Positions 4,589 to 49,721 of a stretch of 64,000 bases of DNA are shown one piece after another. The stretch's first letter is position 1. Every line of letters begins with the position of its first letter. Source of the stretch: Massospora cicadina (Eukaryota; Entomophthoromycota; Entomophthoromycetes; Entomophthorales; Entomophthoraceae); contig JAKSZP010000194.1 in the NCBI GenBank assembly GCA_022478985.1, positions 85,381 to 149,380 of the forward strand. Reading direction: 5' to 3'. The position numbers and the translations under genes are program-made. The notes beneath the pieces are model-generated. The model was not told the DNA's origin, made no database searches, and saw only the letters and a program-made list of their open reading frames with translations.

Positions 4589-6482
4589 ATTATTTCTTTG
4601 ACCACTCGAAGTCACTTTTGAGCGATTTTAAATTTAAGTTTATTTATCCACAGCCATCTGCAGCAAACCTATTCTTTGATGTCCTTGGCTCTGCCGCCGG
4701 CCACCCCAGTGTGGGGCAGCAGTGCACCCCCACCTAGCGTTTTCCGCCCCATGGGCAAGCGCGTTTGGAATTGCTCAAACAGCCCACCCACTGCTTCCAA
4801 CCGTTTTGTCCCCCCATGGGACTTAGGGCTCCACCTGGCGCGCGTCCACCCTTCTCGCCCCCATCCTCTCGCCCTCCCTCGCTCTGCCATTCGTTATTTC
4901 CTCAGAGTGGACTATGGGCGTTTGTTCCCATATGCCAATAAGGCAATTATTGACCTAGCCACTGCGGCCTTTACAACGGCTGGCTTTATAGACTTCCGCC
5001 CTTTTAAGGGCTACTTTGACGTTGGGTTCCAATCTGAGGAGGATGCTGAAGCGGCAGCACAAACTCCTCTAATTTATAAAAAAAACCCATTCCCACAACC
5101 CATACTCGCCTCCCTTCAGACACCATGCTAGTGGTATACTTTGCAAATCTCCCATCCAACCTTCCACCCCAGGTTTTGTATGACCAGTTGGTCGCGGGGC
5201 TCATGGCTTATGGCACTCAGCCCAACCTCATCTTTGCCATTCCATCTGGTGCGGAACGCCTTGCTGCTCCTCATGCAACAGCCACCATCATACCACATCA
5301 CCCTACCATAGCCAACAAATCCCACCCCACGCTAGTGTGGCTGCAGCGCCTGATCATTTCTTTTGGGCTCAGGTCAATAGTGGTAGGCAGATTTGTTCCC
5401 TCTGCTTTGGCCTCGACCATGCAAAAAGAGCGTGCCCTCAGGCCAAATCCGCTGCTGCGGCTTCTGAGCCCCCCTCTGGAGGTTTAGTATGGGGCGCTTT
5501 GCTGCCCCCTCCCACCCTCCAATCTCGTTTGGTGGGCCCACATGGAAAATCAGCCCCCCCAAAACATCCATCCTCACTCTCCCACCTAAATCTACGCCAG
5601 CCCATCAGAGCAATGCTTGGACCACCATTTACACCCAAGCAGCTGCCCATTCGCCCAATCCTATCCACCTAAATTTAAACGTCACTATTCCAGTGAACCA
5701 AAATCCATGGGATCTATTGGCTGAAACTGACGAATCAGGTAATGTCCTCATTAGTAAGCATACAGGTCAACCTTTCTGCCAAGGCGATTATGGGCAGGCA
5801 GAATTTTTCTTCCCAACTTCAATAAAACCCCTACCCCTCGCCATTTTTCTCCTCTATCCAATACAGCCCCCTTCCAAAGTGACCACCAGCTCGCCTTAGC
5901 TGCGGTGGCCTCTCCTCATTGCCCAAAACTACGCTTCGCGGTGGCCCAGTCAGTGGCTCAGCTCCAGCATGGCCTGCCCACCATCTTCTTCCCCCCTGAC
6001 TTCCCTGAATCTCCCTGCAGTGACATCTCGAAACTATTCAATGATGCTGAAATTGCTGTTATTATGTTGCAACGATTGCTTCATTCAAATCCTCAGCCAA
6101 AGTCACCCGCCACAGTATCTCCCTTTTCACCCAACTTCCTGAAGCCCGCAAAGAAGCTGAAGTTCTCCTCGCAGCTTTTTGTTGAAACACTTTCCCATCA
6201 TTATCTTGATGCGGAAGTGGAAAACTCCTACTACGCTGACCTCAGCCCCCACTATGCGGATGCCCCAACGCCCTGGTTCTCTGCTCTGATCTGGTACTGT
6301 AACCAACATCCCTTGGTCGAGGTGGGTCTTTCTGAAAACCAACCCCCGACACCTCCTCACCCTCTGCCATGGTGGGTTAGCAGTTTCTGCTTCCCACCTG
6401 GTTAGTAGTTTGTTTTGTCACTTTGAGTGTTGTGTTTGGTACTGTCCATCCCCTGGTCGGCGTACCTCAAATAAATTGAAAG
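4589..6482 (+). mobile_element. LINE1: ORF1-only (HAL1-like) non-LTR element
   Basis: This 1.9-kb GC-rich element is bounded by a 14-bp TSD. It carries only an ORF1-type protein with a zinc knuckle, and no endonuclease or RT. Its 3' tail (6441-6482, CCCTGGTCGG then CCTCAAATAAATT) is shared with LINE2, LINE3 and the SINE. LINE3 has the same structure and length, so this looks like a family of deletion derivatives and not a one-off truncation. It inserted into element B. Confidence 0.8.
4676..6405 (+). pseudogene. LINE1 ORF1p remnant: two N-terminal domains plus zinc knuckle
   Basis: Open frames in different phases cover an ORF1-type nucleic-acid-binding protein. Domain 1 contains GYFDVGFQSEEDAEAAA (about 5010-5055) and domain 2 LVVYFANLPSNLPPQVLYDQ (about 5128-5190). 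They align by eye with LDLGFESKIAADKAAA and the following domain of LINE2. A CCHC-type knuckle ICSLCFGLDHAKRACP lies near 5396-5445. Downstream, QNPWDLLAETDESG matches MNPWSSLAETDEMG of LINE3, and a C-terminal HGGLAVSASHLV motif matches its HGGLSASALSHLV. Several frameshifts break it. ORF1 proteins of this kind bind the element RNA. Confidence 0.7.
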
Positions 6483-6496: not shown

Positions 6497-6719
6497 TGAA
6501 AAGAAGCTTGGGAAAATATCACACAGAGAAATGACTACGGGCCTATAGGATGGGTTTCCCATTATGAGGAGAACCTCTTTAAATTTCTCACTAAAGTGAA
6601 GCATTATAGAAAAGAAATTGACCAAATTGATGATTATACTCCAGTCAAAGAGCGAAGATCAAACAAATTTTTATTCTCATAATTTAAAAACCACAAATGA
6701 TTTTAAAACTAATAATAAC
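6497..6719 (+). pseudogene. B internal coding remnant, part 2
   Basis: This is B sequence between the two LINE insertions. One frame reads coding-like from EAWENITQRNDYGPIGWVSH through KHYRKEIDQIDDY to about 6670. It joins in phase with the frame that ends at the LINE1 insertion site, which supports one B protein before the insertions. The family is not recognised. Confidence 0.4.
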
Positions 6720-6730
6720 AATCATTTAGG
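6720..6730 (+). repeat. LINE2 target-site duplication, left
   Basis: AATCATTTAGG here matches AATTATTTAGG at 12008-12018 with one C/T difference. Confidence 0.7.
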
Positions 6731-7025
6731 ATAAACTTTTCTTTCTCGTTGCAAACATATTTGCAACCTATTCAATTCAAGACTAAATCTAGTTTGATAA
6801 TCTCAGAGAGGAGATTAGTCTGCGCCCATGTCAGGGAGCAGTTGGGCAAGCAAGGTAAGAGGAGCAGGCGGAAGGCCCGCGGCCTCCAACGTTTGAAAAC
6901 ACCCCGGAGAATCTGGTGGAATAGACAAAAATCTCAAAAAACCGGCGGTCACAATTTCCCTGGAGATACTCACATGGCAAGCACGATGCAACCAGTACAT
7001 CAACACGCCACACTCCCAGCCACTT

Positions 7026-7840
7026 TTGTTGGTGGAATTCGGAGACCGTGTGTATCTGGACATCCAAAAAATGGCCTTATGGGAAAAATTTTGTGAAGAT
7101 GTACACAAAATTTTCCTGACCGCGGTGTACATTACACCTCACTCCATGTCATGTGGTTGGCTGGACCTAGGTTTTGAAAGCAAAATAGCAGCAGACAAGG
7201 CTGCAGCAGTGCGCATAGTGGTTGACCTCCCCGAAGGGCAACTAGTCATCAAAACCAAATGCACCAGATGAACATATTAAAACAAATTTTCCTCACGTTT
7301 GACTTTTTACCTACTACGGTAAAATGTGACATTTTAGAGCAACACCTGAAATATGGTCTCGCCGTATATGGCGAAATACAATCTTTCAAAATGCAACGCT
7401 TCACACTGATGCCACACCTGTGCACTGGCAAAGCCATTGCAGTTCTGACCTCAACTGAGGAGATTGCGAAAGACCTAACCCAGATCCCGCACTCCACTTT
7501 TATTGATATTGCAGGGCATACCACCCACACATTCTAGGTAACCGTGGACAGCGAACCCCCCATTTGCACCCACTGTGACGTGTTCAGCCATAAGGTGCAC
7601 GCATGCCCCATCAAGGAGGGCGTCACATTCCAAGAGCACCCCTTGGCAGCCATGGCCAGCGGAGAGGCGCACTACGAACCAACCGCAAGCACCAAGGAGG
7701 CTTTCCCATAGGGAGCACAAGGCTGCTACCTATTGGTAAAGCCCATCTCCCCACAGGAGTGGAAGAAGGCCAAGCAGGCCCATAGGGCCACGGCCAAGAA
7801 AGCGGCCAAGGCCACCACCACCATCCCACACTCACAACGC
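7026..7840 (+). pseudogene. LINE2 ORF1p remnant
   Basis: The first domain has VYITPHSMSCGWLDLGFESK and runs to about 7270. A frameshift leads to the second domain, with DFLPTTVKCDILEQHLKYGL (about 7300-7360). After an in-frame stop near 7537, a CCHC-like knuckle PPICTHCDVFSHKVHACP follows (about 7557-7610). The same two-domain-plus-knuckle plan occurs in LINE1 and LINE3. It is followed by a low-complexity Lys/Ala-rich linker to about 7840. Such proteins coat the RNA before target-primed reverse transcription. Confidence 0.65.
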
Positions 7841-8177
7841 TAGGAGGACATGGAGACCTTCGCAGCAGAAGCGACTCAGGAATCCATCATCCAATCAGAT
7901 TGGGAAGCCCATGCTGAGCGGGCCACTCAATCTGAGGATCTGATGGGAGATTTGATCTCACCCAATTGCTGCACCCAAGCTCCAGTCAAAACCGACTTAG
8001 GACCTATCCCAACTGAAAATTTTTTTTTGACCTGCTCGATGGTGTACCGAACTCATATGCACCACAAAAAATTCGTCCGACGTCGGGAAAACAAAAGCGA
8101 AGGCCAAAGCCAATGCAACTCTTTCCGCAAAAATTAACAAAAACCCCAATAGCATTGCTGCTAACACCCACGCTGCT

Positions 8178-8980
8178 GTGAAAGCCCGTGGGGACCTTGA
8201 ATTGGCTGGTGGGCCTGGGGGCCCACCCTCACACCTAAGGTGCGATGGGGAAACCTTCACTCTAGGGATGTTGAATATCGCTGGACTCAAGGCCTCCCCA
8301 TCCCAGGCTAGGAAACTGAGTTTATTACAACACAATTTACCCGTGGATATCCTGGCCATCCAGGAGTCCCACTGTCCACGAGGTTCCAAGGAAGCTTGGA
8401 AAACAATGCTCCTCCCATCCCTATCCTTTTGGTCGAAGTACTGTGTGGTGCTAATTTAGAAAAATAATTTTTTTAAATTCACATCCTCAGAAACATTCCT
8501 AAATGGCTGAGTGCTCGTTGTCACCTTCTCGTGGGCTGACGTTGCACATGCAATTGTCAACATTTATGCCCCAAATGGTGCACATGAGTGTCAGGAATTT
8601 TTCTTGTCGGTTAAATCCCTCCCACTACCCCCTGATTCTTTCCTAATTGGCGACATGAACTGTTGGCTAACCTCACCATTAGACTGGTGGCCTCCCTCAC
8701 CCCACGCCCCACAGGGTCACGTAGAACTACGCGTTCTAAAAGCCACCCTTGGGTTAACGGATGTGCTGCCGCGACATGCCCCACTGCTCAAAAACATGAC
8801 GCGTCCCCACATCCACAACAGCCAATTAAGGTCCATGACCTGCATCGACCTTATTCTAACACTGGCGAAATTCCAACCCCACATCTCCCACTTCAAAACA
8901 ACGAAAATGGAATTCTCCAACCACCGACTGGTCTCAATAACCTACCACTTACCCATCACAGTTGCAAAGGCCCCACATTG
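8178..8980 (+). pseudogene. LINE2 endonuclease domain (APE/EEP-like)
   Basis: Two frames carry the endonuclease-exonuclease-phosphatase fold motifs in order: LGMLNIAGLKA (N-terminal Asn), DILAIQESHC (catalytic Glu), VNIYAPNGAHE, FLIGDMNCW (Asp/Asn pair), SMTCIDLILT, and FSNHRLVSITY (the catalytic His region, usually SDH). The frames join across a stop or shift near 8459-8511. In LINEs this domain nicks the target DNA to expose the primer for reverse transcription. Confidence 0.8.
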
Positions 8981-9409
8981 GTGCAAAATCCACCCCCCCC
9001 GAGCTCGCGTCACCAGGATTCTCCACGTGGGTGGAAGAGGCAACTTTGGCAAAATTGTTTGTTGCACTTTTTTGTGCGGACCCCATTTCCACATGGGCAA
9101 CTTTCAAAGAGGACACCATCCACCACTATCGGCATCTCTCCTCCAGACGCTCATGAGCCACATTGGCATTTATCTCGCGCACTCTGGTGGAATTGGCCCA
9201 CATGGAGTCCAACATCCCAGCCACAGGATACAGCCCTGCATGGGGCTGGGAGTGGGCGAGGGCAGCCTCCCACCTCAATGCACTAAAAAGGCAACACAAG
9301 CATTGGGTTTATGTCCAATACAGGGCCACACGCATCACTAAAGGTGACAAGTGCACCGCATACTTCTTTAAAAAAATTTTCGCACCACACCAGAGCGTGG
9401 CCTGCACAC

Positions 9410-10560
9410 AGGTGTGAAGATCAGATAGTTCCATTGCGGACACACTGGCCAAAGTGGCAATCAAAACACAAAAATATTACTCCAAGTTATACTGAGCTGA
9501 ACCAATTCAGCCAGCCAAAATAGCAGAATTTCTCAACCGCGCTCATATTCGCACCATTTTCTGATACCCTTAAATAATAGATTAAATTACTCCAAACGAA
9601 TTATGGACAGCCATTCGCGGTGCGCCTAACCAAAAATGCCCATACCCACATGGCATTCCATATGAGTTCTACAAAAAATATTTCAAATATATCTTCCTAT
9701 TGCTGCTAGCCTCACTTAACCAAAGCCTGTTGGAAACACGCCTCCTACCAGGAGGACATGAGGCCTTTACTGTCACACTCTTCAAGAAAGGGGATAAGTT
9801 TGACTTAGCCAACTGGCGCCCCATTTCTCTAACAAACATAGACACCAAAATTTTAACAAAAATCATGGCTAACCGTATAGGGACTGAAGCATCTGCCACA
9901 TCTCCCCAGAACAATTTGGTTTCATCCCCAGAAGGTCAATTTGGGATAACGTGCACTCCGTGGCTAATGCATGTCAATCCACAGCCTCTGGGGCACTAAT
10001 ATTCTTGGACCAACAAAAGGCCTATGATAGAGTAAACTGGGAATACCTAAGGGCCTGCCTCCATCAATTCCGCCTACCCCCCCCCACTTCATCAACTGGT
10101 TGATGCTGCTCACGGAATCTGCAACAATGGCAGTGCGTGGCCCAGGCTTCCTAACGGAATTAGTCCGCCCTCAAAGGGGCTTGCAACAAGGGGACCCCCT
10201 TAGCCCACTCTTATATAACTTCAGCCTTGACCCACTACTTTGGAAAGTGAATGCCCGCCTCACTGGGGTCCATGCACCAAGCCAAGCCCCAGTCAAGATG
10301 ATGGCATTTGCAGATGACTGCGTGGTGGGGGTGTCTAATAACAAAGATGCACGCGCGCTTGAAGCCCTCATCCAGGAATATTCCCAGGTAAGTAACGCGG
10401 CACTGAACGCCTCCAAAACCGAAATCATCCTCCTTGGTCGGTTTCAGAACTGCTGGGCCCTAGCAATTAGTTCCCAACCTGGTAATCTGCTCGCCCACGT
10501 CCACGCCTTACTAACTCAACACACACCGCTCCACTGGTGCTCCCCTTCGTGCCACATCCT
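9410..10560 (+). pseudogene. LINE2 reverse transcriptase domain
   Basis: RT motifs are read in more than one frame. AFTVTLFKKGDKFDLANWRPISL and TKILTKIMANRI lie near 9755-9885. IFLDQQKAYDRVNWEYL (motif A, catalytic Asp) is near 10000. RPQRGLQQGDPLSPLLYN is near 10165-10220. MAFADDC (motif C, FADD) is at about 10303-10323. At least one frameshift falls between 9999 and 10100. This is a LINE-type (non-LTR) RT, distinct from the gypsy RTs elsewhere in the window. Confidence 0.88.
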
Positions 10561-11880
10561 ACCATAGGACCGGTGCGCCATCTGGGAGTGTGGATGGAGG
10601 CAGGCGGATATGCATCAGCAGTAATGGAGTGCCATATACTGGACAACGTGACAAAGCGAATCGCCACTCTCAGAGCCCACCCTACTACACTCACTGGCAG
10701 GGTTGTTCTTGCCAAATCTATGCTCCTATCCAAAGTTTGGTTCGGAGCCCACGCCATCCCCTTCTCCCCAAGCTTCTTCAAATCCCTGTATGCTTTGCTG
10801 CAAGGATGGCTTTGGTCAGGCCGCCCTCCACCAGTACGGCTAGAGGTCATGTTTGGCCCTCATCATCAAGGTGGCATGGGCCTGCTTGACTTCAAAGCCC
10901 ATGCTGCCAAGATCCTGCGCACCTGGATCGCGGCCTTCACCGCTCCTACACTCCCATCCCAAGACTGGTCCCGCGCGGCCCACTCCAACTTCTCCCGAGC
11001 CTTGGGCCTCAACAACCCATCAAACCCCCACTCCCTGATGAAATACCTCGCATCACACACATCAGCCACAGGTCCTCACGGGACTAAAACCCACTACAAA
11101 CGAATCCTACTCTCCATGCGAAGCGCAGAATGGAGAATTCATATTAGTGGACATACAACCTGTAGAGGCTGCCCCTCTCCTCAGTTCACACAAGAGGTAC
11201 AGGGGCTACCCATCCATGATGGCGTGATCCCCATTCGACCCCATGTCCTATCCAGGGTGGACTACCTGGACTTGATGGACATCCCTTATTCCACTGAGAC
11301 CCAAAAGACCATCTGGAAATATGCACACCATCCTCTATTGCAGCCTCAAGTCCGCTCCCATGTGTGGCGCTGCCTGAGGCGGGTGTATCTCCAGCTGAGC
11401 GCTCTAACGCTTTACATTCATCCTGTGTCATGTGTGGCCAGTATGGAACGCTGTTTCACCGCCTGGAGAAGTGCCCCACCTCTAAAGTGATATGGCGCGA
11501 AGTTTAACGTCTGCTGGGCCAGGATCAAACGCATCCCTTCATTCTGTCAAGAGATATGTTTGCTTCATAAATGTCTCCCCCCTTCCACACTCCCTCCGTG
11601 CTCTGGTGGTTGCAATCACCATGTGGACTATCCACACAATTGTTTTGGATGCCATCTCTGGCTCCATCCCCACCCTCCCAGAAGCTGTCCACAGATACCG
11701 TCTCATTTGGTGGACCACTTTCAAGCGTGGATGTTTGGATACCTCCCACCACGTCACCGACAACTGGTCTCCTCCTGGTTCCCAGTCTGGTTCATCAAAT
11801 CAGACCCCTTCCTCCACACGTGCTCAATAGTGGCTACGGCCCCTTCACACGTTCCCTCCCCCTCCCCATAAGTGGCGTTC
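10537..11880 (+). pseudogene. LINE2 C-terminal region with cysteine/histidine zinc motif
   Basis: A 317-codon open frame continues the post-RT thumb region. VRHLGVWMEAGG is the usual 'lGv' motif after FADD, then HPTTLTGRVVLAKSMLLSK and MGLLDFKAHAAKI. A shifted frame near 11425-11485 gives CVMCGQYGTLFHRLEKCP, a C-x2-C...H-x4-C motif of the kind found at LINE C-termini, followed by VVAITMWTIHTIVLD. No RNase H domain was recognised. Family knowledge places this motif in template or target contact. Confidence 0.7.
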
Positions 11881-12007
11881 CCGCTGGCAACAAGAGATAG
11901 CATCGCTTCTCTGGGGTGCCTCCCCTGGTACTAAGTTTATCTTTCCTGAGTCATATTTGGAAGTGTCCGTCCCATGGTCAGCCTTCCCCGCAATAAATTT
12001 AAATAAA

Positions 12008-12018
12008 AATTATTTAGG
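12008..12018 (+). repeat. LINE2 target-site duplication, right
   Basis: AATTATTTAGG pairs with 6720-6730. Confidence 0.7.
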
Positions 12019-27796: not shown

Positions 27797-28700
27797 TAAT
27801 GAACTGACCCATAACCTTGGCCTTCTCCGCCCTCCTCGCTGGCACTGGCAAAGCGTTGGCCTACGCCCTAACCCTAAATGTACTCTCTCTTTGCGACCTG
27901 GCCTTCTCCTGCTGGTTGGCTGCCTCATTCATCTGAGTGTGCCGCCAGTTTGTGTTGACCTGGTCCCCACCCTGCCGAGCCCTGGCAACAAGTGTCACCC
28001 CATCAGTCAACATGATAGGGTTGGGAGTCCCCCTATCCCTTCTGATGAGGTGGCCGACCAAATCCTGGGTGTCCTGGTGGAACTTCAGGTGCGCTTCACC
28101 ACTGATGGGGGAAATCTCCCCTTCCTTCTGATGCCCAGCAGAGCGTAGCTCTCCTTGACGCCCTAGATGGGGATGCCTGCCGCTGGGTCAGGGGAGTGCT
28201 CCGCTCTGCTGCTAAGTCTGGGAACCCCACCCCCTACTGGCGCTGGTCACTTTGGTGGTTCAGGCCCCTGAGTCTAGACCGGCGCGCCTCCTCCATCTCT
28301 TCACACTAGGACAGACAGCCATGGACCTACCCTCCCTGATCAAAGCCTTTGTGGTCCTGGCCCCCATGGTGCCCATCCCCCTGAAATTGCCATCTCCGCC
28401 TTCTGAGCTGCCTTGGACCCCACTGCGGCTGCCCATGCATCTTGGGACCCCCTCCCAGGTCCTTAGAAATTGCATTCTCTGTAGCTCGCGCAATTGGGGC
28501 CAGGCCTTTCCATACTCCCACATGCGCTGTTGCAGCTCTTGAGGGGCCGCGTGCCACCCCCTCTCCCCTGCCAGTGGTCGCAGCCAAGGGAAGCGCCCCC
28601 AGGTCTCGCCGCCCTCTGCGCTCCCTCTGTACCCACCTTGGGTACCCTCCCCTCAGAAGAGCCCCTGCCTGCTGCACCCCCTGCTCTCACCCCAGATCAG
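27797..28700 (+). pseudogene. Element G gag remnant
   Basis: This region lies between the LTR and protease and encodes Pro/Ala/Leu-rich sequence across several frames. The stretch LLDALDGDACRWVRGVLRSAAK near 28160-28225 resembles the gag core of fungal gypsy elements. No zinc knuckle was seen. There is also no convincing tRNA primer site in the first 30 bases after the LTR. Confidence 0.5.
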
Positions 28701-28704
28701 GAGA

Positions 28705-29500
28705 GTGGGTCCTCGATCCCCCAGAGCTCAGAGCCTGCCCATCCTGGCGCTATCACCCCCCCCAGTTAACCCAGAGACCCCCCTCAAAGAGAGTGGAGTG
28801 GGCATACGCATCAACCCTCGCTGCCCCATTTGGGACAAGGATGAAGCAGAAACCCCTCCCCAATTACAGACCTCCTCAGCGCCTCTTGGTCAATCTCTTC
28901 TAATGATGGGTCATGCTCCCTCCTCAGCTGCCCTCTCTCTCGCCCACCCCAATAAAGAAGATCAAGCCTACTTCTTGTTCCCTATCTCCTTCCCCTCAGA
29001 GTCAGGTGAATTTACCGTGCAAGCCCTCCTTGACACCGGAGCGGCAGGCAACTTTATTGACCTCAGTGTGGCGCATTCCTTGGACCTGGCAATGGAAGAA
29101 GCCTCATTGGTCCTGGGCGCTTCATCGGAACCCATGAAGTCCTACTGCGTCTGACGCCCATTGCACTTCTCTGTCCATGACTTTGGGTTCAGTGACCACT
29201 TCTCAGCCATACAGGACTTGCTCTACCCCGTGATCTTGGGGGTGGGCTGGTGGCAGCGACAGCAGGTCCGCATTAATCTTGCTAATAACTCCTTGTTGTT
29301 CTCAAACCTCAAGTTGAGTGGAGAGTTTCCCTTGTTGAAAACCCTCCCCCTTGACACATCCCTCAGCTCTATTTCCCCTCTGGATCCTGCTCCTATTGAC
29401 CTCCCTTTGGACTTCCCACCCTTCCTAACCCCTATAAGTCCATCTTTGACATGTTGCTGGCTTCCAAGCTCCCCCTACACTCCAAATATGACCTAACATT
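28705..29500 (+). pseudogene. Element G protease
   Basis: The frame 28705-29154 carries VQALLDTGAAGNFIDLSVA, an intact D-T-G-A aspartic protease active site at about 29032-29043. One stop after SYCV leads to 29161-29496, which contains YPVILGVGWWQRQQVRINL, the ILGxxWL-like C-terminal protease motif. The enzyme would process gag-pol. The single in-phase stop at 29152-29154 is the main visible lesion. Confidence 0.8.
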
Positions 29501-30113
29501 TCAGCTGACAGTCAACCTAGTCAAGATCAACTGCCCCCTCTACCCCTACACTGAGGAAGAGGACAAGGCTTTGGGGACTTGGCTAGACGAGATGTTAGAG
29601 AAGGGGTGGCTTGTCAAGAAGTCTTCACCGGTCGCCTCCCCCATAGTTTTCGCTTGGAAAGCAGATGGCACCCTGCGCCCTTGCATCAACTATGGCCACC
29701 TCAACAACATCACCATCCCTGACCCCTACCCGTTGCCCTTAGAGCAAACCATCGCCCAAGCCATTGCCAAATCCCAGGTCTTCTCAAAGTTGGATCTGGT
29801 GAACGCCTTTAACCAGGTGAGGGTGGCGAGAGGACAAGAGTGGCTCACAGCTATCTGCACCTGCCAGGGTCTTTTTCAATTCAGAGTGATGCCCTTCAGA
29901 CTGAAGAATGCTCCAGCCACCTTCCAATGCCTCATCAATGATGTGCTTGGGGACTTGCACTTCTCATGCGCTGTAGCCTACATTGATGATATTCTGATCC
30001 ACTCCCCTACCCCAGAGCAACACGCCAAGGATCTAGAAGCAGTGGTGGCAGCCCTCCACAAAGCAGGGCTCTTTGTAAAACCCTCAAAGTGCGAATTTTT
30101 TGGGATGAAGTGA
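29451..30113 (+). pseudogene. Element G reverse transcriptase
   Basis: A 220-codon open frame covers most of RT. GWLVKKSSPVASPIVFAWK and TLRPCINYGHLNNITI come first, then PYPLPLEQ, SKLDLVNAFNQVRV (motif A with its Asp), MPFRLKNAPATFQCLIN, and VAYIDDILIHS (motif C, intact YIDD at about 29979-29990). A frameshift at the end moves into 30089-30553, which opens with the thumb motif IFWDEVTFLGNLVLKDG. All three catalytic Asp residues appear present. Confidence 0.9.
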
Positions 30114-30720
30114 CCTTCTTAGGTAACCTCGTCCTGAAGGATGGATATGCTGTTCCCCCTCTAAGCTTGAGGCGATCCAGTCTTGGCCTACCCCTACTAC
30201 ACAGAAACAACTTTGAAGTTTCCTCGGCACCATCACCTTCTTTAAAAAAATTCTCCCCAGCCCTCGCCCAACTGGCGGCACCCCTTCACCCCCTCACTGG
30301 GAAGAACGCCCCCTTCAAGTGGTCCCCAGAATGCCAGCAGGCCTTCGAGTCTATCAAGGAGGTTTTCCTCACCGCCCCAGTCCTGAGGCATTCCAACACC
30401 TCCCACCCCTTCATTGTAGCCTGCGACGCCTCATTGGTGGTGGTGGGCGCCATGCTGCTACAGGAGCATGAGGGGTCGAGCACCCAGTGGCCTACTACTC
30501 CCACAAATTCACCTCCACAGAACAAGTATGGCCAATATATGACAAGGAGCTAGCGGCAGTGGCGTGGTCACTCACCCACTGGAGATACCTCCTGCAAGGC
30601 GCCCAGCACAAAATCACCGTTCAGACTGACCACAAGGCATTACTATACTACTGCAAACCCCAGAAGTTGGGCACCGCAAACTCGCACATACCAGGACCTA
30701 TGTGGGTTTCATTTTAAATA
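30114..30720 (+). pseudogene. Element G RNase H
   Basis: The frame 30089-30553 continues with LHPLTGKNAPFKWSPECQQA, HPFIVACDASLVVVGAMLLQ (first catalytic Asp), then shifts. MAYYSHKFTSTEQVWPIYDKEL and VQTDHKALLYYCKPQK follow in 30487-30717. The frameshift near 30480 and the abrupt end after 30717 break it. Confidence 0.85.
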
Positions 30721-30809
30721 TGAATTCATAAAAGGCCCTTGAATGTGTTGCTGACATGCTCAGCTAGAACCCATCTCTATCACTAATGGTGGATAGGACC
30801 TTCTAGAGC

Positions 30810-31600
30810 TTAATACTGTAGTGCCCCCCTCCCAAATCCTCTCCTTGGCCCCTCCGACAGTAGCTTTTGCTGACCTTGCCCCCAACGCCCCACTCCTCCT
30901 CTGCGTCCTTGCTGCCCAGACCTGTTGCCCTGAAGGGTTAGAGCTTTATAGTGACCTAGAGTCTTCAAGTCAGAAGAGAGCCCCATACACCCTGCGGGAG
31001 GGAACCATCTGGTTCCATGATTCGGTTTGGGTCCCCCCATCTCTACGCAATTGTGTTATTGAGGAACACCATGTCCCCCAGACTGTTGGGCACCCCAGCA
31101 TCAATAAGTGCGCTGATCTCGTAAAGAGAACTTATAACTGGCCATGGTCCTCAAAGGACATCCCCTCCTTGATCTCCCGCTGTGTCACCTGCGCCCAGGC
31201 AAAATAGGACTGTTATGGGAAGAAGGGGTTGCTACACCCCCTGCAGCAGGCGGAAGGCCCATGGACCTCAGTCTCGGTAGACTTCATCGTGGAGCTCCCC
31301 CCTCTATTGGCTCAGATGCTATCATGGTAGTCATTGATCGACTTACCAAGTTCGCGCTCTTCATCCCCTGCCTCTCCTCTATTACCTCGGTGGAGACCGC
31401 AAATTTATTTGTCAACCATTTCTTGCCATGTTTGGTCTCCCAAAAAGGATAGTGAGCGACAGGGGACCCCAGTTCACCGCCTAGTTCCAGGAAGAGTTGC
31501 TAACCATCCTCAGCATCAAGCCCTGCAGATCTACGGCCTACCACCCCCAGTCCAATGGGCAGACTGACGGGTGAACCAGGTACTGGAGAAGTGCCTGCGC
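30810..31600 (+). pseudogene. Element G integrase
   Basis: The HHCC zinc finger is readable at 31065-31200: VIEEHHVPQTVGHPS, then CVTCAQAK before a stop. The core continues in other frames: TSVSVDFIVELPP (first Asp) near 31270, VVIDRLTKFALFIPC near 31328, DRGPQFTA (second Asp) near 31455, and YHPQSNGQTDG near 31540, where the catalytic Glu is Asp. At least three frame changes are needed, so it is inactive. Confidence 0.85.
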
Positions 31601-31604
31601 TGTT

Positions 31605-32381
31605 ATGCGACAGCCTTGCAGAACACTTGGGCTAAGGACCTGCTCCTTGCTTAGTTTGCATATAAAAATTCACTTCAGTCCTCGTTTAAACTCTCCCCCT
31701 TTGAGGCCACCCTGGGTTACAACCCCTCCTTCCAAATTGCCCCAGCTCTCCTCAGAAGACCCTGCAGCTGAAGACTGGGTGTGTGCACTCCGCGAGACAC
31801 ACAACCTAGTTTGTGAACATTTGATAAAGTCCATCAAGGATTACAAAAGGTTTTCTAACTGGAAGCGCCTCCCTGGACATGATATCAAAGTCAGCTCCCT
31901 AGTTATGCTGGACACCCGCAATCTTTCCTTAAAAGCCCCCACCCAGAAACTCGCATCCAAATGCTCTGGCCCCTTCGAGGTGGAGAAGGACTTAGGTAAT
32001 GGAGCCTATTGTTTGAAGATGCCTGTTCACTGGAAGCAGCATAACGTCTTCCACACCTCCCATCTGACCCCCTTCAAAGGGGAAAGGCCATCATCACCAG
32101 AGCCAATCCTCGTTGGGGAATCCCAGGAAGTGGAGGTGGAGGCTATCCTGGCTTCCCAGAGGTCCCACAGATCCGTTCAATACCTGGTTACCTGGAAAGG
32201 CTACCCCTCATATGAGAACAGCTGGGTGAGTGCATGCGACTGCACAAATTTCAAGGACCTGATAGAGGAATCCACAACTCCCACCTGGCAGCTCCCCATC
32301 CCCCAAGAAGATCACAGCCATTCTGGCCATAAAGCTCTCAGAGAGGCACAAGAACTATGCCCTGGTCCATGCCCCAGGTGA
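31605..32381 (+). pseudogene. Element G integrase C-terminus with chromodomain
   Basis: A 258-codon frame holds the GPY/F-like module (KLASKCSGPFEVEKDLGNGA, then HNVFHTSHLTPFKG). A chromodomain follows: VEAILASQRSHRSVQYLVTW, KGYPSYENSWVS, and LIEEST. Chromodomains of gypsy integrases steer insertion to particular chromatin, typically heterochromatin. The aromatic residues Y, W and W of the fold are present. Confidence 0.88.
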
Positions 32382-46660: not shown

Positions 46661-48596
46661 TTGAATTTATTTTGATGCACGCCGACCAAGGGACAGACAA
46701 TACCAAAGCTTGAAGATCTAAAAAAACTAACAAACTAACCACTTGAATAGAATAAAACGACCGCCCAAAACGAGTGGGAAAAACACTACAAATGAGAATA
46801 CAACCAACCAGGTGGGACAGCGCTGAGGCGCTCAACCCACCATGGTAGAAGGGAGGGGGATCGGGGGGATTATCCTTAGTATCAGATTCCAACTCAATGA
46901 GAGTGCAGGACAAGGAGGAGAGCAAAGGGGTGGGGTGATCAGCGACATGGGAAGCAAGGATGCTGATGACTGGCTGTTTGATGAAATTATCTGAGGCCAG
47001 TAAGTCACTAATGTATTTGGAAAAGCAGGCCTCCACCTTAAAGCGGAGGGAAGGAAGCTGGGACAATAAAGCCATGGAGGCGTGGGTGATTCTTGGGTTA
47101 TTCTTTGAGGTGGTAACCACTTTCTGGATGGTGGCATTAGCTCTATTGTAAGCAAATAGAATTGGCTGTTTGTTAGGCGGGGATGTAGACAGCTTGATGA
47201 TGGAAAGAGAAAGTTGTGTGGTTAGTGCTACTACTGATGACTCAGCCATCTCACGAATGGTGGATATGACATGGTGAGCAGCTGCCACAATAGTGAGCAG
47301 GTGATCCGAGTGGAACTACAAGGCATCCAGCTGGGGGGCGTAAGATTGTTGAGTGACCAAATTGGGGTTTTGTACTTGGATAAATTCGTCATATGTGGGC
47401 TTCGAGGCTTCAATTTAATAACCCATCTCATCAGTTTCAGCCAATGAGGACCATGGGTTCATTTCAAATTCGAAATCAGGTTCAGTGGATTGAAGTGGAG
47501 TGGTGGGCAGCTGCAGAATAACATGGAAACCCACATTTGTCAAAGCTGTTTCCTGATTGGATGAGGCACAAGTGGCACTGGCCTGAGGAAGGGGTTGGCT
47601 GCAATAGGCGCTGAAGCGGCAGCAGGCTTTGAAGGAGGGGGTAGGATTGTACCACATGCCAGAAAAGCAGTGGGATGCAGAGAAAATTGTGGGCCAGATG
47701 ATGATATTGCTGGGCAAGAGGAGGCCGCGAGGGAGGGGCATTTACACTTTGAGTGATCTAACTCAAAGTAGGAAGGGCAGATGGTCCTCCCGCCCTTGAC
47801 GTGGGCCCAGAATGGGTGGTTGGGGCAGAGGGAATGATGGCATGGGGGAAGTGCAACACAATTTTAGAAAATTCTGGGCTGATCATGGCAAATTTTCAAG
47901 GCCCAGCTAGGTGAGCGGCCCCATTGGGGACCATAAACTGAAGGATGGGGTTGGAGCTGTATGCAGTCAAACCTTCCATCAGCTCCTGATGGAGCACTGC
48001 GTGGGGAGATGGTGGGTAACCCCAAGAACTGAACCACCATGGTGGTATCAGTGGGGAGCTGGGTACACGTTCTTGGGATAGGGGTGCCCTTGAAAACCAG
48101 GGGCTCTGTAGCCGCAGTGGCAGTGTCAGATTCACAAGTGAAGCCCAAGTCAAAATACCCCTTAAAGGGATGGAAGTCTATAAAGCCATCCATCAGCATC
48201 ACCACCTGGGCCAAGTTGATAATTGCTTGTTACTCATATGGTAACAATCTCCTGTACTTGACCTGAAGGCCAAAATGAAGCCTGGAGTGGGGGAGAACGA
48301 TTGGGCTGCAAGGCACAGCCTGGGCACATGCCAGGTGGATGGTGAGATCCTTGGGCAGATTAAACAATCTGAGGACTTAGTGGGACTGGATGAACCAGTC
48401 TGAGTGCATTTTTCACCAGACAGAAAACGCTGGGTGGGGTTTTGCTGCTGCCCCATAATAGAGCAGCCAGCGGCAAATCTGACATCATTGGGGATTAAAT
48501 GGGAGTGGCAGGCATAGGATCAATAGTTGTTTTACTTACATTTTTGAATAAATTCGCTCAAAAGTAACTCCAAGCGCAAAGAAAAGTTCCGTTAAA
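46661..48596 (-). mobile_element. LINE3: ORF1-only (HAL1-like) non-LTR element, minus strand
   Basis: This 1.94-kb element is bounded by a perfect 9-bp TSD. Its structure copies LINE1: ORF1 domains, zinc knuckle, Ser/Pro-rich linker, C-terminal HGGLSASALSHLV, then the tail (46661-46708, minus strand CTTGGTCGGCG...AATAAATT). It has no endonuclease or RT. Its 5' end shares AACTTTTCTTT with LINE2 and a TTACTTTTGAGCGA-like segment with LINE1. Confidence 0.8.
46662..48460 (-). pseudogene. LINE3 ORF1p remnant
   Basis: From the right: MDGFIDFHPFKGYFDLGFTC (domain 1, about 48170-48110) and a second domain. A knuckle TICPSYFELDHSKCKCP (about 47735-47785) follows, in which the second Cys of CCHC is Tyr. 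FEMNPWSSLAETDEMGY is near 47410-47470. A 210-codon frame (47288-46656) then contains MAAAHHVISTIREMAESSVV, RFKVEACFSKYISDLLASDN and the C-terminal VLSVPWSACIKINSK, whose last codons are the conserved 3' tail itself. Confidence 0.7.
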
Positions 48597-49409: not shown

Positions 49410-49425
49410 ATTATATATAGATAAT
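49410..49425. repeat. SINE target-site duplication, left
   Basis: ATTATATATAGATAAT is identical to 49706-49721. The sequence is low in complexity, but 16 identical bases exactly at both ends of the SINE are convincing. Confidence 0.8.
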
Positions 49426-49705
49426 TTATTTACTTGAGGTGGGCTGACTAGGGGATGATACAGCAACGTTTAAGGGAAATTGATGAATGGTAAAGGAGGA
49501 TAAAATCTGGAAAACCTCCATGCACAGCATATTATAAGCCAAGATCTCCATGGACTGCCTTTGCTATTCGCTATCTCAGTTTGGGGCATTGGTGCACAAT
49601 GCCAACACAGTCATAATTGTCCCCTACCCAAAGTTCCAGTATTAGAATCAAACTTGGGGAGGCAGCAGTAGAGGTCCCTACTCTACCACTTGGGTATCAT
49701 CCCCT
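49426..49705 (-). mobile_element. tRNA-derived SINE with LINE-type 3' tail
   Basis: This 280-bp element on the minus strand is flanked by a perfect 16-bp TSD. Its 5' end (right) is a tRNA-like head with box A and box B. A unique body of about 150 bp follows. Its 3' end reads ATCCCCTAGTCAGCCCACCT then CAAGTAAATAA, which aligns with the LINE1 tail ATCCCCTGGTCGGCGTACCT then CAAATAAATT. It encodes no protein. Such elements are transcribed by RNA polymerase III and copied by the partner LINE's RT. Confidence 0.82.
49630..49705 (-). promoter_or_regulatory. tRNA-like head of the SINE (RNA polymerase III promoter)
   Basis: Read leftwards it starts GGGGATGATACCCAAGTGG, then TAGAGTAGGG. TACCCAAGTGG fits box A (TRGYNNARNNG) with one mismatch. 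AGTTTGATTCT fits box B (GGTTCGANNCC) at eight of eleven positions, C-to-T changes included, about 31 bases downstream. The GGGGATG...AAGTGGTAGAG start is close to alanine tRNAs as I know them. The anticodon and acceptor arms no longer fold, so it is not a functional tRNA. Confidence 0.7.
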
Positions 49706-49721
49706 ATTATATATAGATAAT
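49706..49721. repeat. SINE target-site duplication, right
   Basis: ATTATATATAGATAAT pairs with 49410-49425. Confidence 0.8.

What the first reader, a model, noticed from the sequence alone, without database searches (positions are those of the whole stretch)
49410..49721. tRNA-headed SINE whose 3' tail matches the local LINE
A 280-bp minus-strand element has tRNA-like boxes A and B, a perfect 16-bp TSD, and a 3' end (ATCCCCTAGTCAGCCCACCT) that aligns base for base with the tails of LINE1 and LINE3. It is known that some SINEs take the 3' end of a partner LINE so that its RT recognises their RNA. Here both partners occur in one window. I know of no named SINE with this structure.
Basis: partly seen in the sequence, partly recalled or inferred. 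Interest (0 to 1): 0.85.

Follow-up and report, generated by a model that had tools for sequence, protein, structure and literature searches.

The report
Fungal SINE with a LINE tail
A short parasitic DNA element in the giant genome of a cicada-killing fungus is present in thousands of copies and carries the end sequence of larger jumping elements, so it can probably borrow such an element's copying enzyme.

Summary
The 280-bp minus-strand element at 49426-49705, with a perfect 16-bp TSD, is one copy of a large SINE family in a 1.47-Gb genome that fits Massospora cicadina. Head and tail patterns match 7,052 and 1,538 times, with none in either control. TSDs of score 10 or more occur in 37 of 42 full-length copies, against 4 of 412 swapped-flank controls. 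The consensus has box A and box B and partly resembles the host's tRNA-Cys; no cloverleaf survives. For the consensus tail the best non-self places in the window are the 3' ends of LINE1 (25/30) and LINE2 (20/30); LINE3 (19/30) ties with an unrelated place. The RT-bearing LINE-like element is LINE2 (6731-12001); a family member is nearest to human L1 among solved structures. Some SINE copies share that family's terminal TTTAAAATTTA repeat. Best reading: a tRNA-headed SINE mobilised in trans through a tail shared across an L1-like LINE group. The kind is known; I found no description of this family.

The parts
49426..49705 (-). SINE copy, 280 bp, 8.6% from the 281-bp family consensus
49706..49721 (-). 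target-site duplication on the element's 5' side
49410..49425 (-). target-site duplication on the element's 3' side, identical 16 bp
49681..49704 (-). tRNA-like head (element positions 2-25); the consensus matches the 5' end of a host tRNA-Cys(GCA) gene at 19 of 24
49686..49696 (-). box A-like sequence TACCCAAGTGG (1 mismatch)
49644..49654 (-). box B-like sequence AGTTTGATTCT (3 mismatches; consensus AGTTCGATTCT has 2)
49428..49457 (-). LINE-like 3' tail CATCCCCTAGTCAGCCCACCTCAAGTAAAT
49694..49705 (-). first 12 nt AGGGGATGATAC, exact inverted repeat of 49450-49461 (10 of 11 pairs in the consensus)
49450..49461 (-). GTATCATCCCCT in the tail, complementary to the 5' end
6731..12001 (+). LINE2, about 5.3 kb, decayed RT-bearing element (endonuclease motifs seen by eye only) with a related tail; probable 17-bp TSD with 2 mismatches at 6714-6730 and 12002-12018

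Best explanation
It is a copy of a high-copy SINE family of (inferred) Massospora cicadina. The tRNA-like head carries an internal pol III promoter (boxes shown, transcription inferred). The RNA ends in a tail of about 30-40 nt related to the 3' ends of a group of L1-like LINEs (shown). The endonuclease-RT of such a LINE nicks DNA at about YT|AAAA, takes the SINE RNA by its tail, and reverse-transcribes it at the nick, leaving a TSD of mostly 12-22 bp and a short A/T-rich end (TSDs, sites and ends shown; trans-mobilisation inferred). The RT-less elements called LINE1 and LINE3 would be further non-autonomous users of the same tail.
For: Copies: 5,149 first-look candidates, of which 40 were scored; the 41 matches are the window copy, 39 others at 89-91% over nearly the whole length, and one partial at 81%. 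A head pattern (25 nt, up to 3 mismatches) matches 7,052 times and a tail pattern (26 nt, up to 1) 1,538 times, controls 0. Seven pieces in a 200-kb sample. TSDs: 37 of 42 full-length copies against 4 of 412 swapped flanks. Nick site, n=34: T at -1 0.56, A at +1 0.65, +2 0.79, +4 0.68. Tail: LINE1 and LINE2 3' ends are the two best non-self places for the consensus tail; LINE1 extends to 33 of 41 with one gap. Tail cores also lie downstream of RT or C-terminal reading in L054 and L003 (joined to those LINEs by position only) and in 6 of 6 LINE2-family 3' ends. TTTAAAATTTA follows the tail in 5 of 13 T-variant SINEs (two of the five are near-identical neighbours) and 4 of 6 LINE2-family ends, in 0 of 8 LINE1-family ends; background about 0.0002 per 30 nt. 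A LINE2-family ORF2 has RT over its Pfam cut-off, with endonuclease and zf-RVT just under theirs, and aligns with human L1 ORF2p over residues 7-888.
Against: No RT-bearing LINE with the exact SINE tail was found: the 13 exact matches to the LINE-like variant with GCCCACC are all SINEs. The best tail match is an element without RT. For the LINE2 family the SINE tail's best local alignment fell on the LINE's 3' end in only 3 of 6 fetched loci, on another tail-like place in L099 and elsewhere in L100 and L101. LINE3's gapped tail score is no better than chance (763 of 4,000). TTTAAAATTTA is in 0 of 35 tails of the main variant, so a different LINE may serve it. A tail hairpin shows no covariation. 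Rfam gives no tRNA for the window copy or in any of 20 copies, ARAGORN none in 40 copies and the consensus. Nothing here tests expression or mobility.
Confidence: 0.85

Rival explanations
1. The SINE is mobilised by A-rich tail recognition alone, as mammalian SINEs are by L1; the shared tail is only a relic of the family's origin.
For: Copies end in A/T-rich runs such as AAAATAAA, and the nearest solved relative of the LINE is human L1, for which a review describes relaxed poly(A) recognition (PMC3747384, passages).
Against: The tail core is kept in the copies shown, 4-9% from the consensus, and a related core recurs across several LINE-like elements. The A-runs are short and irregular, not poly(A).
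Confidence: 0.15
2. The element is a truncated or internally deleted LINE or LINE1-type copy, not a SINE.
For: It shares its last 30-41 nt with them, and short 5'-truncated LINE1-family copies with TSDs exist (2 of 7).
Against: Outside the tail it has no convincing match to LINE1, LINE2 or LINE3. Copies start at one constant 5' end with pol III boxes.
Confidence: 0.02
3. The 5'/tail inverted repeat marks a DNA-transposon-like (MITE) element.
For: A 12-bp exact inverted repeat in the window copy.
Against: The inner arm ends about 24 nt before the 3' end; TSDs vary from 12 to 22 bp and 3' ends are ragged; one of the 11 pairs is unpaired in 39 of 40 copies.
Confidence: 0.01

Closest known systems
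Mg-SINE with MgL/MGR583 (Magnaporthe) and SINE2-1_BG with Tad1-24_BG (Blumeria)
   Same: Fungal tRNA-headed SINEs listed with a partner LINE that gives the tail (PMC3747384 table passage).
   Different: One partner is named Tad1; here the LINE is nearest to L1 among solved structures. Mg-SINE is 472 bp with about 100 copies (PMC5063351, passages), against 281 bp and thousands. Sequences were not compared.
AfuSINE2-1a with I-1_AF (Aspergillus fumigatus)
   Same: Fungal tRNA-related SINE whose 3' end resembles the LINE's 3' UTR (PMC5063351, passages).
   Different: At least four copies by Southern blot and a Tad-clade partner, per the same passages.
L1-clade SINE/LINE pairs of green plants (ZmSINE2.3; Chlamydomonas SINEX-3_CR)
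   Same: SINEs that share the 3' end of an L1-clade LINE; [quoted passage not shown] names from passages).
   Different: Plant and algal; a hairpin with compensatory changes is reported there, and I found none here.
   Same: Non-autonomous units with an ORF1-like reading and TSDs. HAL1's nature is recalled; I saw only search listings.
   Different: Fungal; the protein has no Pfam match and its tie to a LINE ORF1 rests on a weak match over the zinc-knuckle region (E 0.004).

Membership tests
SINE | short, dispersed, high-copy, with constant ends | tested here: met
   281 bp; 7,052 head and 1,538 tail pattern matches, 0 in controls; 38 of 39 fetched copies full length
SINE | variable target-site duplications | tested here: met
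   37 of 42 against 4 of 412 swapped controls; lengths 12-22 bp in the 34 best
SINE | internal pol III promoter (boxes A and B) | tested here: met
   by sequence only; box A at position 10, box B at 52; box motifs recalled; transcription not testable
SINE | head derived from a tRNA | tested here: inconclusive
   19 of 24 to tRNA-Cys; best score reached by 6 of 500 shuffles over 17 distinct sequences from 20 fetched tRNAs (5 isotypes) of 37 listed; no Rfam or ARAGORN tRNA
SINE/LINE pair sharing a 3' tail | SINE 3' end homologous to a LINE 3' end | tested here: met
   clear for the RT-less LINE1 family, weaker for RT-bearing LINEs
SINE/LINE pair sharing a 3' tail | same terminal repeat as the partner | tested here: inconclusive
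   5 of 13 T-variant tails but 0 of 35 main-variant tails share the LINE2-family repeat
SINE/LINE pair sharing a 3' tail | conserved tail stem-loop | tested here: not met
   66% of cells paired, no change on both sides; a slid control reaches 75%
SINE/LINE pair sharing a 3' tail | partner's RT needs the tail | not testable with these tools
   needs a mobility assay
L1-clade LINE (LINE2 family) | APE-type endonuclease and RT, no RNase H | tested here: met
   one copy (L102, L096): PF00078 over cut-off; PF03372 24.0 bits against 24.5 and PF13966 25.7 against 27.5, both just under; no RNase H model listed
L1-clade LINE (LINE2 family) | groups with L1 in an RT tree | not tested
   only that human L1 ORF2p is the best solved relative (E 4e-47; R2 4e-22); a paper gives L1 LINEs as 6.3% of M. 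cicadina (PMC11105155, passage)

The most novel reading that the evidence does not exclude
A fungal L1-clade LINE group uses stringent 3'-tail recognition and supports two tiers of parasites, ORF1-only elements and a tRNA-headed SINE, all with the same tail. Stringent recognition would then not be confined to green-plant L1s but could be old in the L1 clade, and this SINE would be the largest known expansion of such a pair in a fungus.
Probability: 0.42. Interest if true: 0.65.

Novelty: new member of a known kind. Interest (0 to 1): 0.5.

Why it matters
[quoted passage not shown] Earlier fungal SINEs are given with roughly 10 to 160 copies (PMC5063351, passages). A family with thousands of copies in an early-diverging fungus, beside RT-bearing LINEs with long open frames and RT-less elements with a related tail, lets one ask whether stringent RNA recognition is ancestral in L1. 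It also gives a repeat model for annotating a genome reported as 92% transposable elements (PMC9584336).

Tried and rejected
Tail hairpin GGT/ACC: 66% of cells pair, no covariation, a slid control reaches 75%. Dropped.

Rfam and ARAGORN for the head: no tRNA. Only boxes and a partial tRNA-Cys match remain.

LINE carrying the exact SINE tail: the 13 exact T-variant matches are all SINEs, so no donor was found. Only the first 100 or so of the 1,538 matches were listed.

Viral-contig scan with the tail pattern: nothing.

5'/tail complementarity: 10 of 5,000 shuffles reach it, the named pairs form in about 88% of cells against 37-62% when slid, and the consensus fold closes on it. But the columns hardly vary and it was noticed after the fact; the window copy's perfect repeat rests on a T found in 1 of 40 copies. 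Kept only as a lead.

Dropped before counts: 8 of 50 hits failed the full-length filter, four of them sample pieces. The 39 fetched copies are those most like the window copy. The main-variant count rests on 35 tails caught by a regular expression in those 39 loci. In one search only 25 nt were available after the T-variant tails.

Full report
What is there. The element at 49426-49705 on the minus strand is 280 bp long and lies between two identical 16-bp copies of its target. Its own genome is held: 1,469,884,898 bases in 16,968 contigs. That fits the published Massospora cicadina assembly of 1.488 Gb in 19,694 scaffolds (PMC9584336, section 3 read). A C-terminal LINE reading frame in the window is 84% and 60% identical to two M. 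cicadina proteins. The species is thus inferred, not given.

Copies. A search with the element gave 5,149 first-look candidates, of which 40 were scored; the tool warns that such counts are lower bounds. The 41 matches are the window copy, 39 others at 89-91% over nearly the whole length, and one partial. The head pattern (25 nt, up to 3 mismatches) occurs 7,052 times, and a LINE-like form of the tail pattern (26 nt, up to 1 mismatch, which admits the main SINE variant) 1,538 times; the reversed controls occur 0 times. In 20 stretches of 10 kb there are seven pieces. I read them as six elements, because two pieces in L066 meet at the same consensus position around about 3.3 kb of other sequence. 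Six in 200 kb would mean about 44,000 copies genome-wide, with a Poisson range of roughly 16,000 to 96,000. The stretches lie on contigs chosen because they hold a good copy elsewhere, so this is rough.

Anatomy. The consensus of the window copy and 39 fetched copies is 281 bp; the window copy differs from it by 8.6%, the others by 3.9-7.5%. These 39 are the best matches, so they are the like end of the family; the sample pieces are 72-87% identical to the consensus. Of 42 full-length copies (38 fetched, the window's, three from the sample), 37 have a TSD of score 10 or more, against 4 of 412 pairings of flanks from different copies; five are weak or have none. Sites look like YT|AAAA (n=34), as an L1-type endonuclease would leave (established knowledge). 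Box A and box B fit the consensus with 1 and 2 mismatches. The head's positions 2-25 match a host tRNA-Cys(GCA) gene at 19 of 24, starting at the tRNA's first base or one before it. The best score over 17 distinct tRNA sequences is reached by 6 of 500 shuffled heads. Only five isotypes were in the set, so another tRNA may be the true source.

The tail. In an ungapped scan of all 30-mers on both strands, the consensus tail's best places after the element itself are the LINE1 end (25/30), the LINE2 end (20/30), and the LINE3 end tied with one unrelated place (19/30). With the window copy's own tail only LINE1 (25/30) stands out. With gaps the LINE1 match extends to 33 of 41. In the gapped control the LINE1, LINE2 and LINE3 scores are reached by 2, 15 and 763 of 4,000 random window 50-mers, with the element itself not excluded (all). 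Other elements in the sample and fetched loci end in a related core, close to GTCCRTCCCCTGGTCGGCnTRCCTC...AATAAA.

Which LINE. Their family's readings have no significant Pfam match in the ORFs tested, so 'ORF1-like' rests on a zinc knuckle seen by eye and a weak match to LINE2. LINE1 belongs to a family with similar candidate numbers for its 5' end (2,360) and 3' end (2,480). Of 8 copies fetched, 7 had long flanks: 4 are full length at about 1.89 kb, 1 has an internal deletion, 2 are 5'-truncated, and all 7 have a TSD. They are thus real units, themselves non-autonomous. LINE2 (6731-12001) has RT. A protein search for its type scored 135 of 91,402 candidates; listed open frames reach 1,089 aa. 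One copy has RT over its Pfam cut-off, endonuclease and zf-RVT just under theirs, and no RNase H model. Human L1 ORF2p is its nearest solved protein. Six of six fetched 3' ends of that family carry GTCCRTCCCATGGTC and then AATAAA (L096: AAAAAA), but the SINE tail aligned best to that end in only 3 of the 6 loci. Four of these six ends, and 5 of 13 SINEs with the LINE-like T-variant tail, continue into TTTAAAATTTA. None of 35 main-variant tails nor 8 LINE1-family ends do; the background is about 0.0002 per 30 nt. Two of the five are near-identical neighbours on one contig. This ties some SINE copies to LINE2-type RT; the main variant's helper remains open.

Against the reading. No RT-bearing LINE with the exact SINE tail was found. 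The tail hairpin is not supported. LINE3's tail match is weak alone. No transcript or mobility data exist here. The L1 assignment was not tested by a tree.

Literature. No paper in the library held both 'Massospora cicadina' and 'SINE' as whole words. 'Entomophthorales' with 'SINEs' gave one rust-fungus paper, listing only. The main texts of the two Massospora genome papers hold 'SINE' 0 times. Wider searches gave no description of this family in their listings. Preprint servers and most subscription journals are not covered, and repeat libraries such as Repbase or SINEBase could not be searched.

Verdict. A real, large, apparently undescribed SINE family of a known kind. Its interest lies in the L1-like helper, the copy number and the sharing of one tail by three kinds of element.

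Noticed in passing
window 4589-6482 and 46661-48596; L069, L070, L071, L075: RT-less elements of about 1.9 kb with TSDs, an ORF1-like reading and a related LINE tail; the LINE1 family has over 2,300 first-look candidates for each end. HAL1-like.
   Followed up: partly
L065:4400-4570: A different short sequence with a box B-like stretch (by eye) and the same tail core (ATCCCAAGATCAACCCACCTCAAATA): possibly a second SINE family. The genome search for it did not complete.
   Followed up: no
49694-49705 and 49450-49461: The SINE's first 11-12 nt are complementary to its tail core (10 of 11 in the consensus), and the predicted fold closes the RNA there, leaving the last 25 nt outside the closing stem.
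   Followed up: partly
M. cicadina annotation (PMC9584336): The newer assembly lists 2,079 tRNAs against 379 in the older one; tRNA-derived repeats may inflate such counts, though this SINE is not called a tRNA by ARAGORN or Rfam here.
   Followed up: no
window 28543-32378: Ty3-like LTR element with RT (29400-30110) and SH3 plus chromodomain matches (31575-32378); related repeats elsewhere in the window.
   Followed up: no
L066:5991-9573: Two SINE pieces on one strand that meet at consensus position 179-181, about 3.3 kb apart: probably one SINE split by a later insertion.
   Followed up: no
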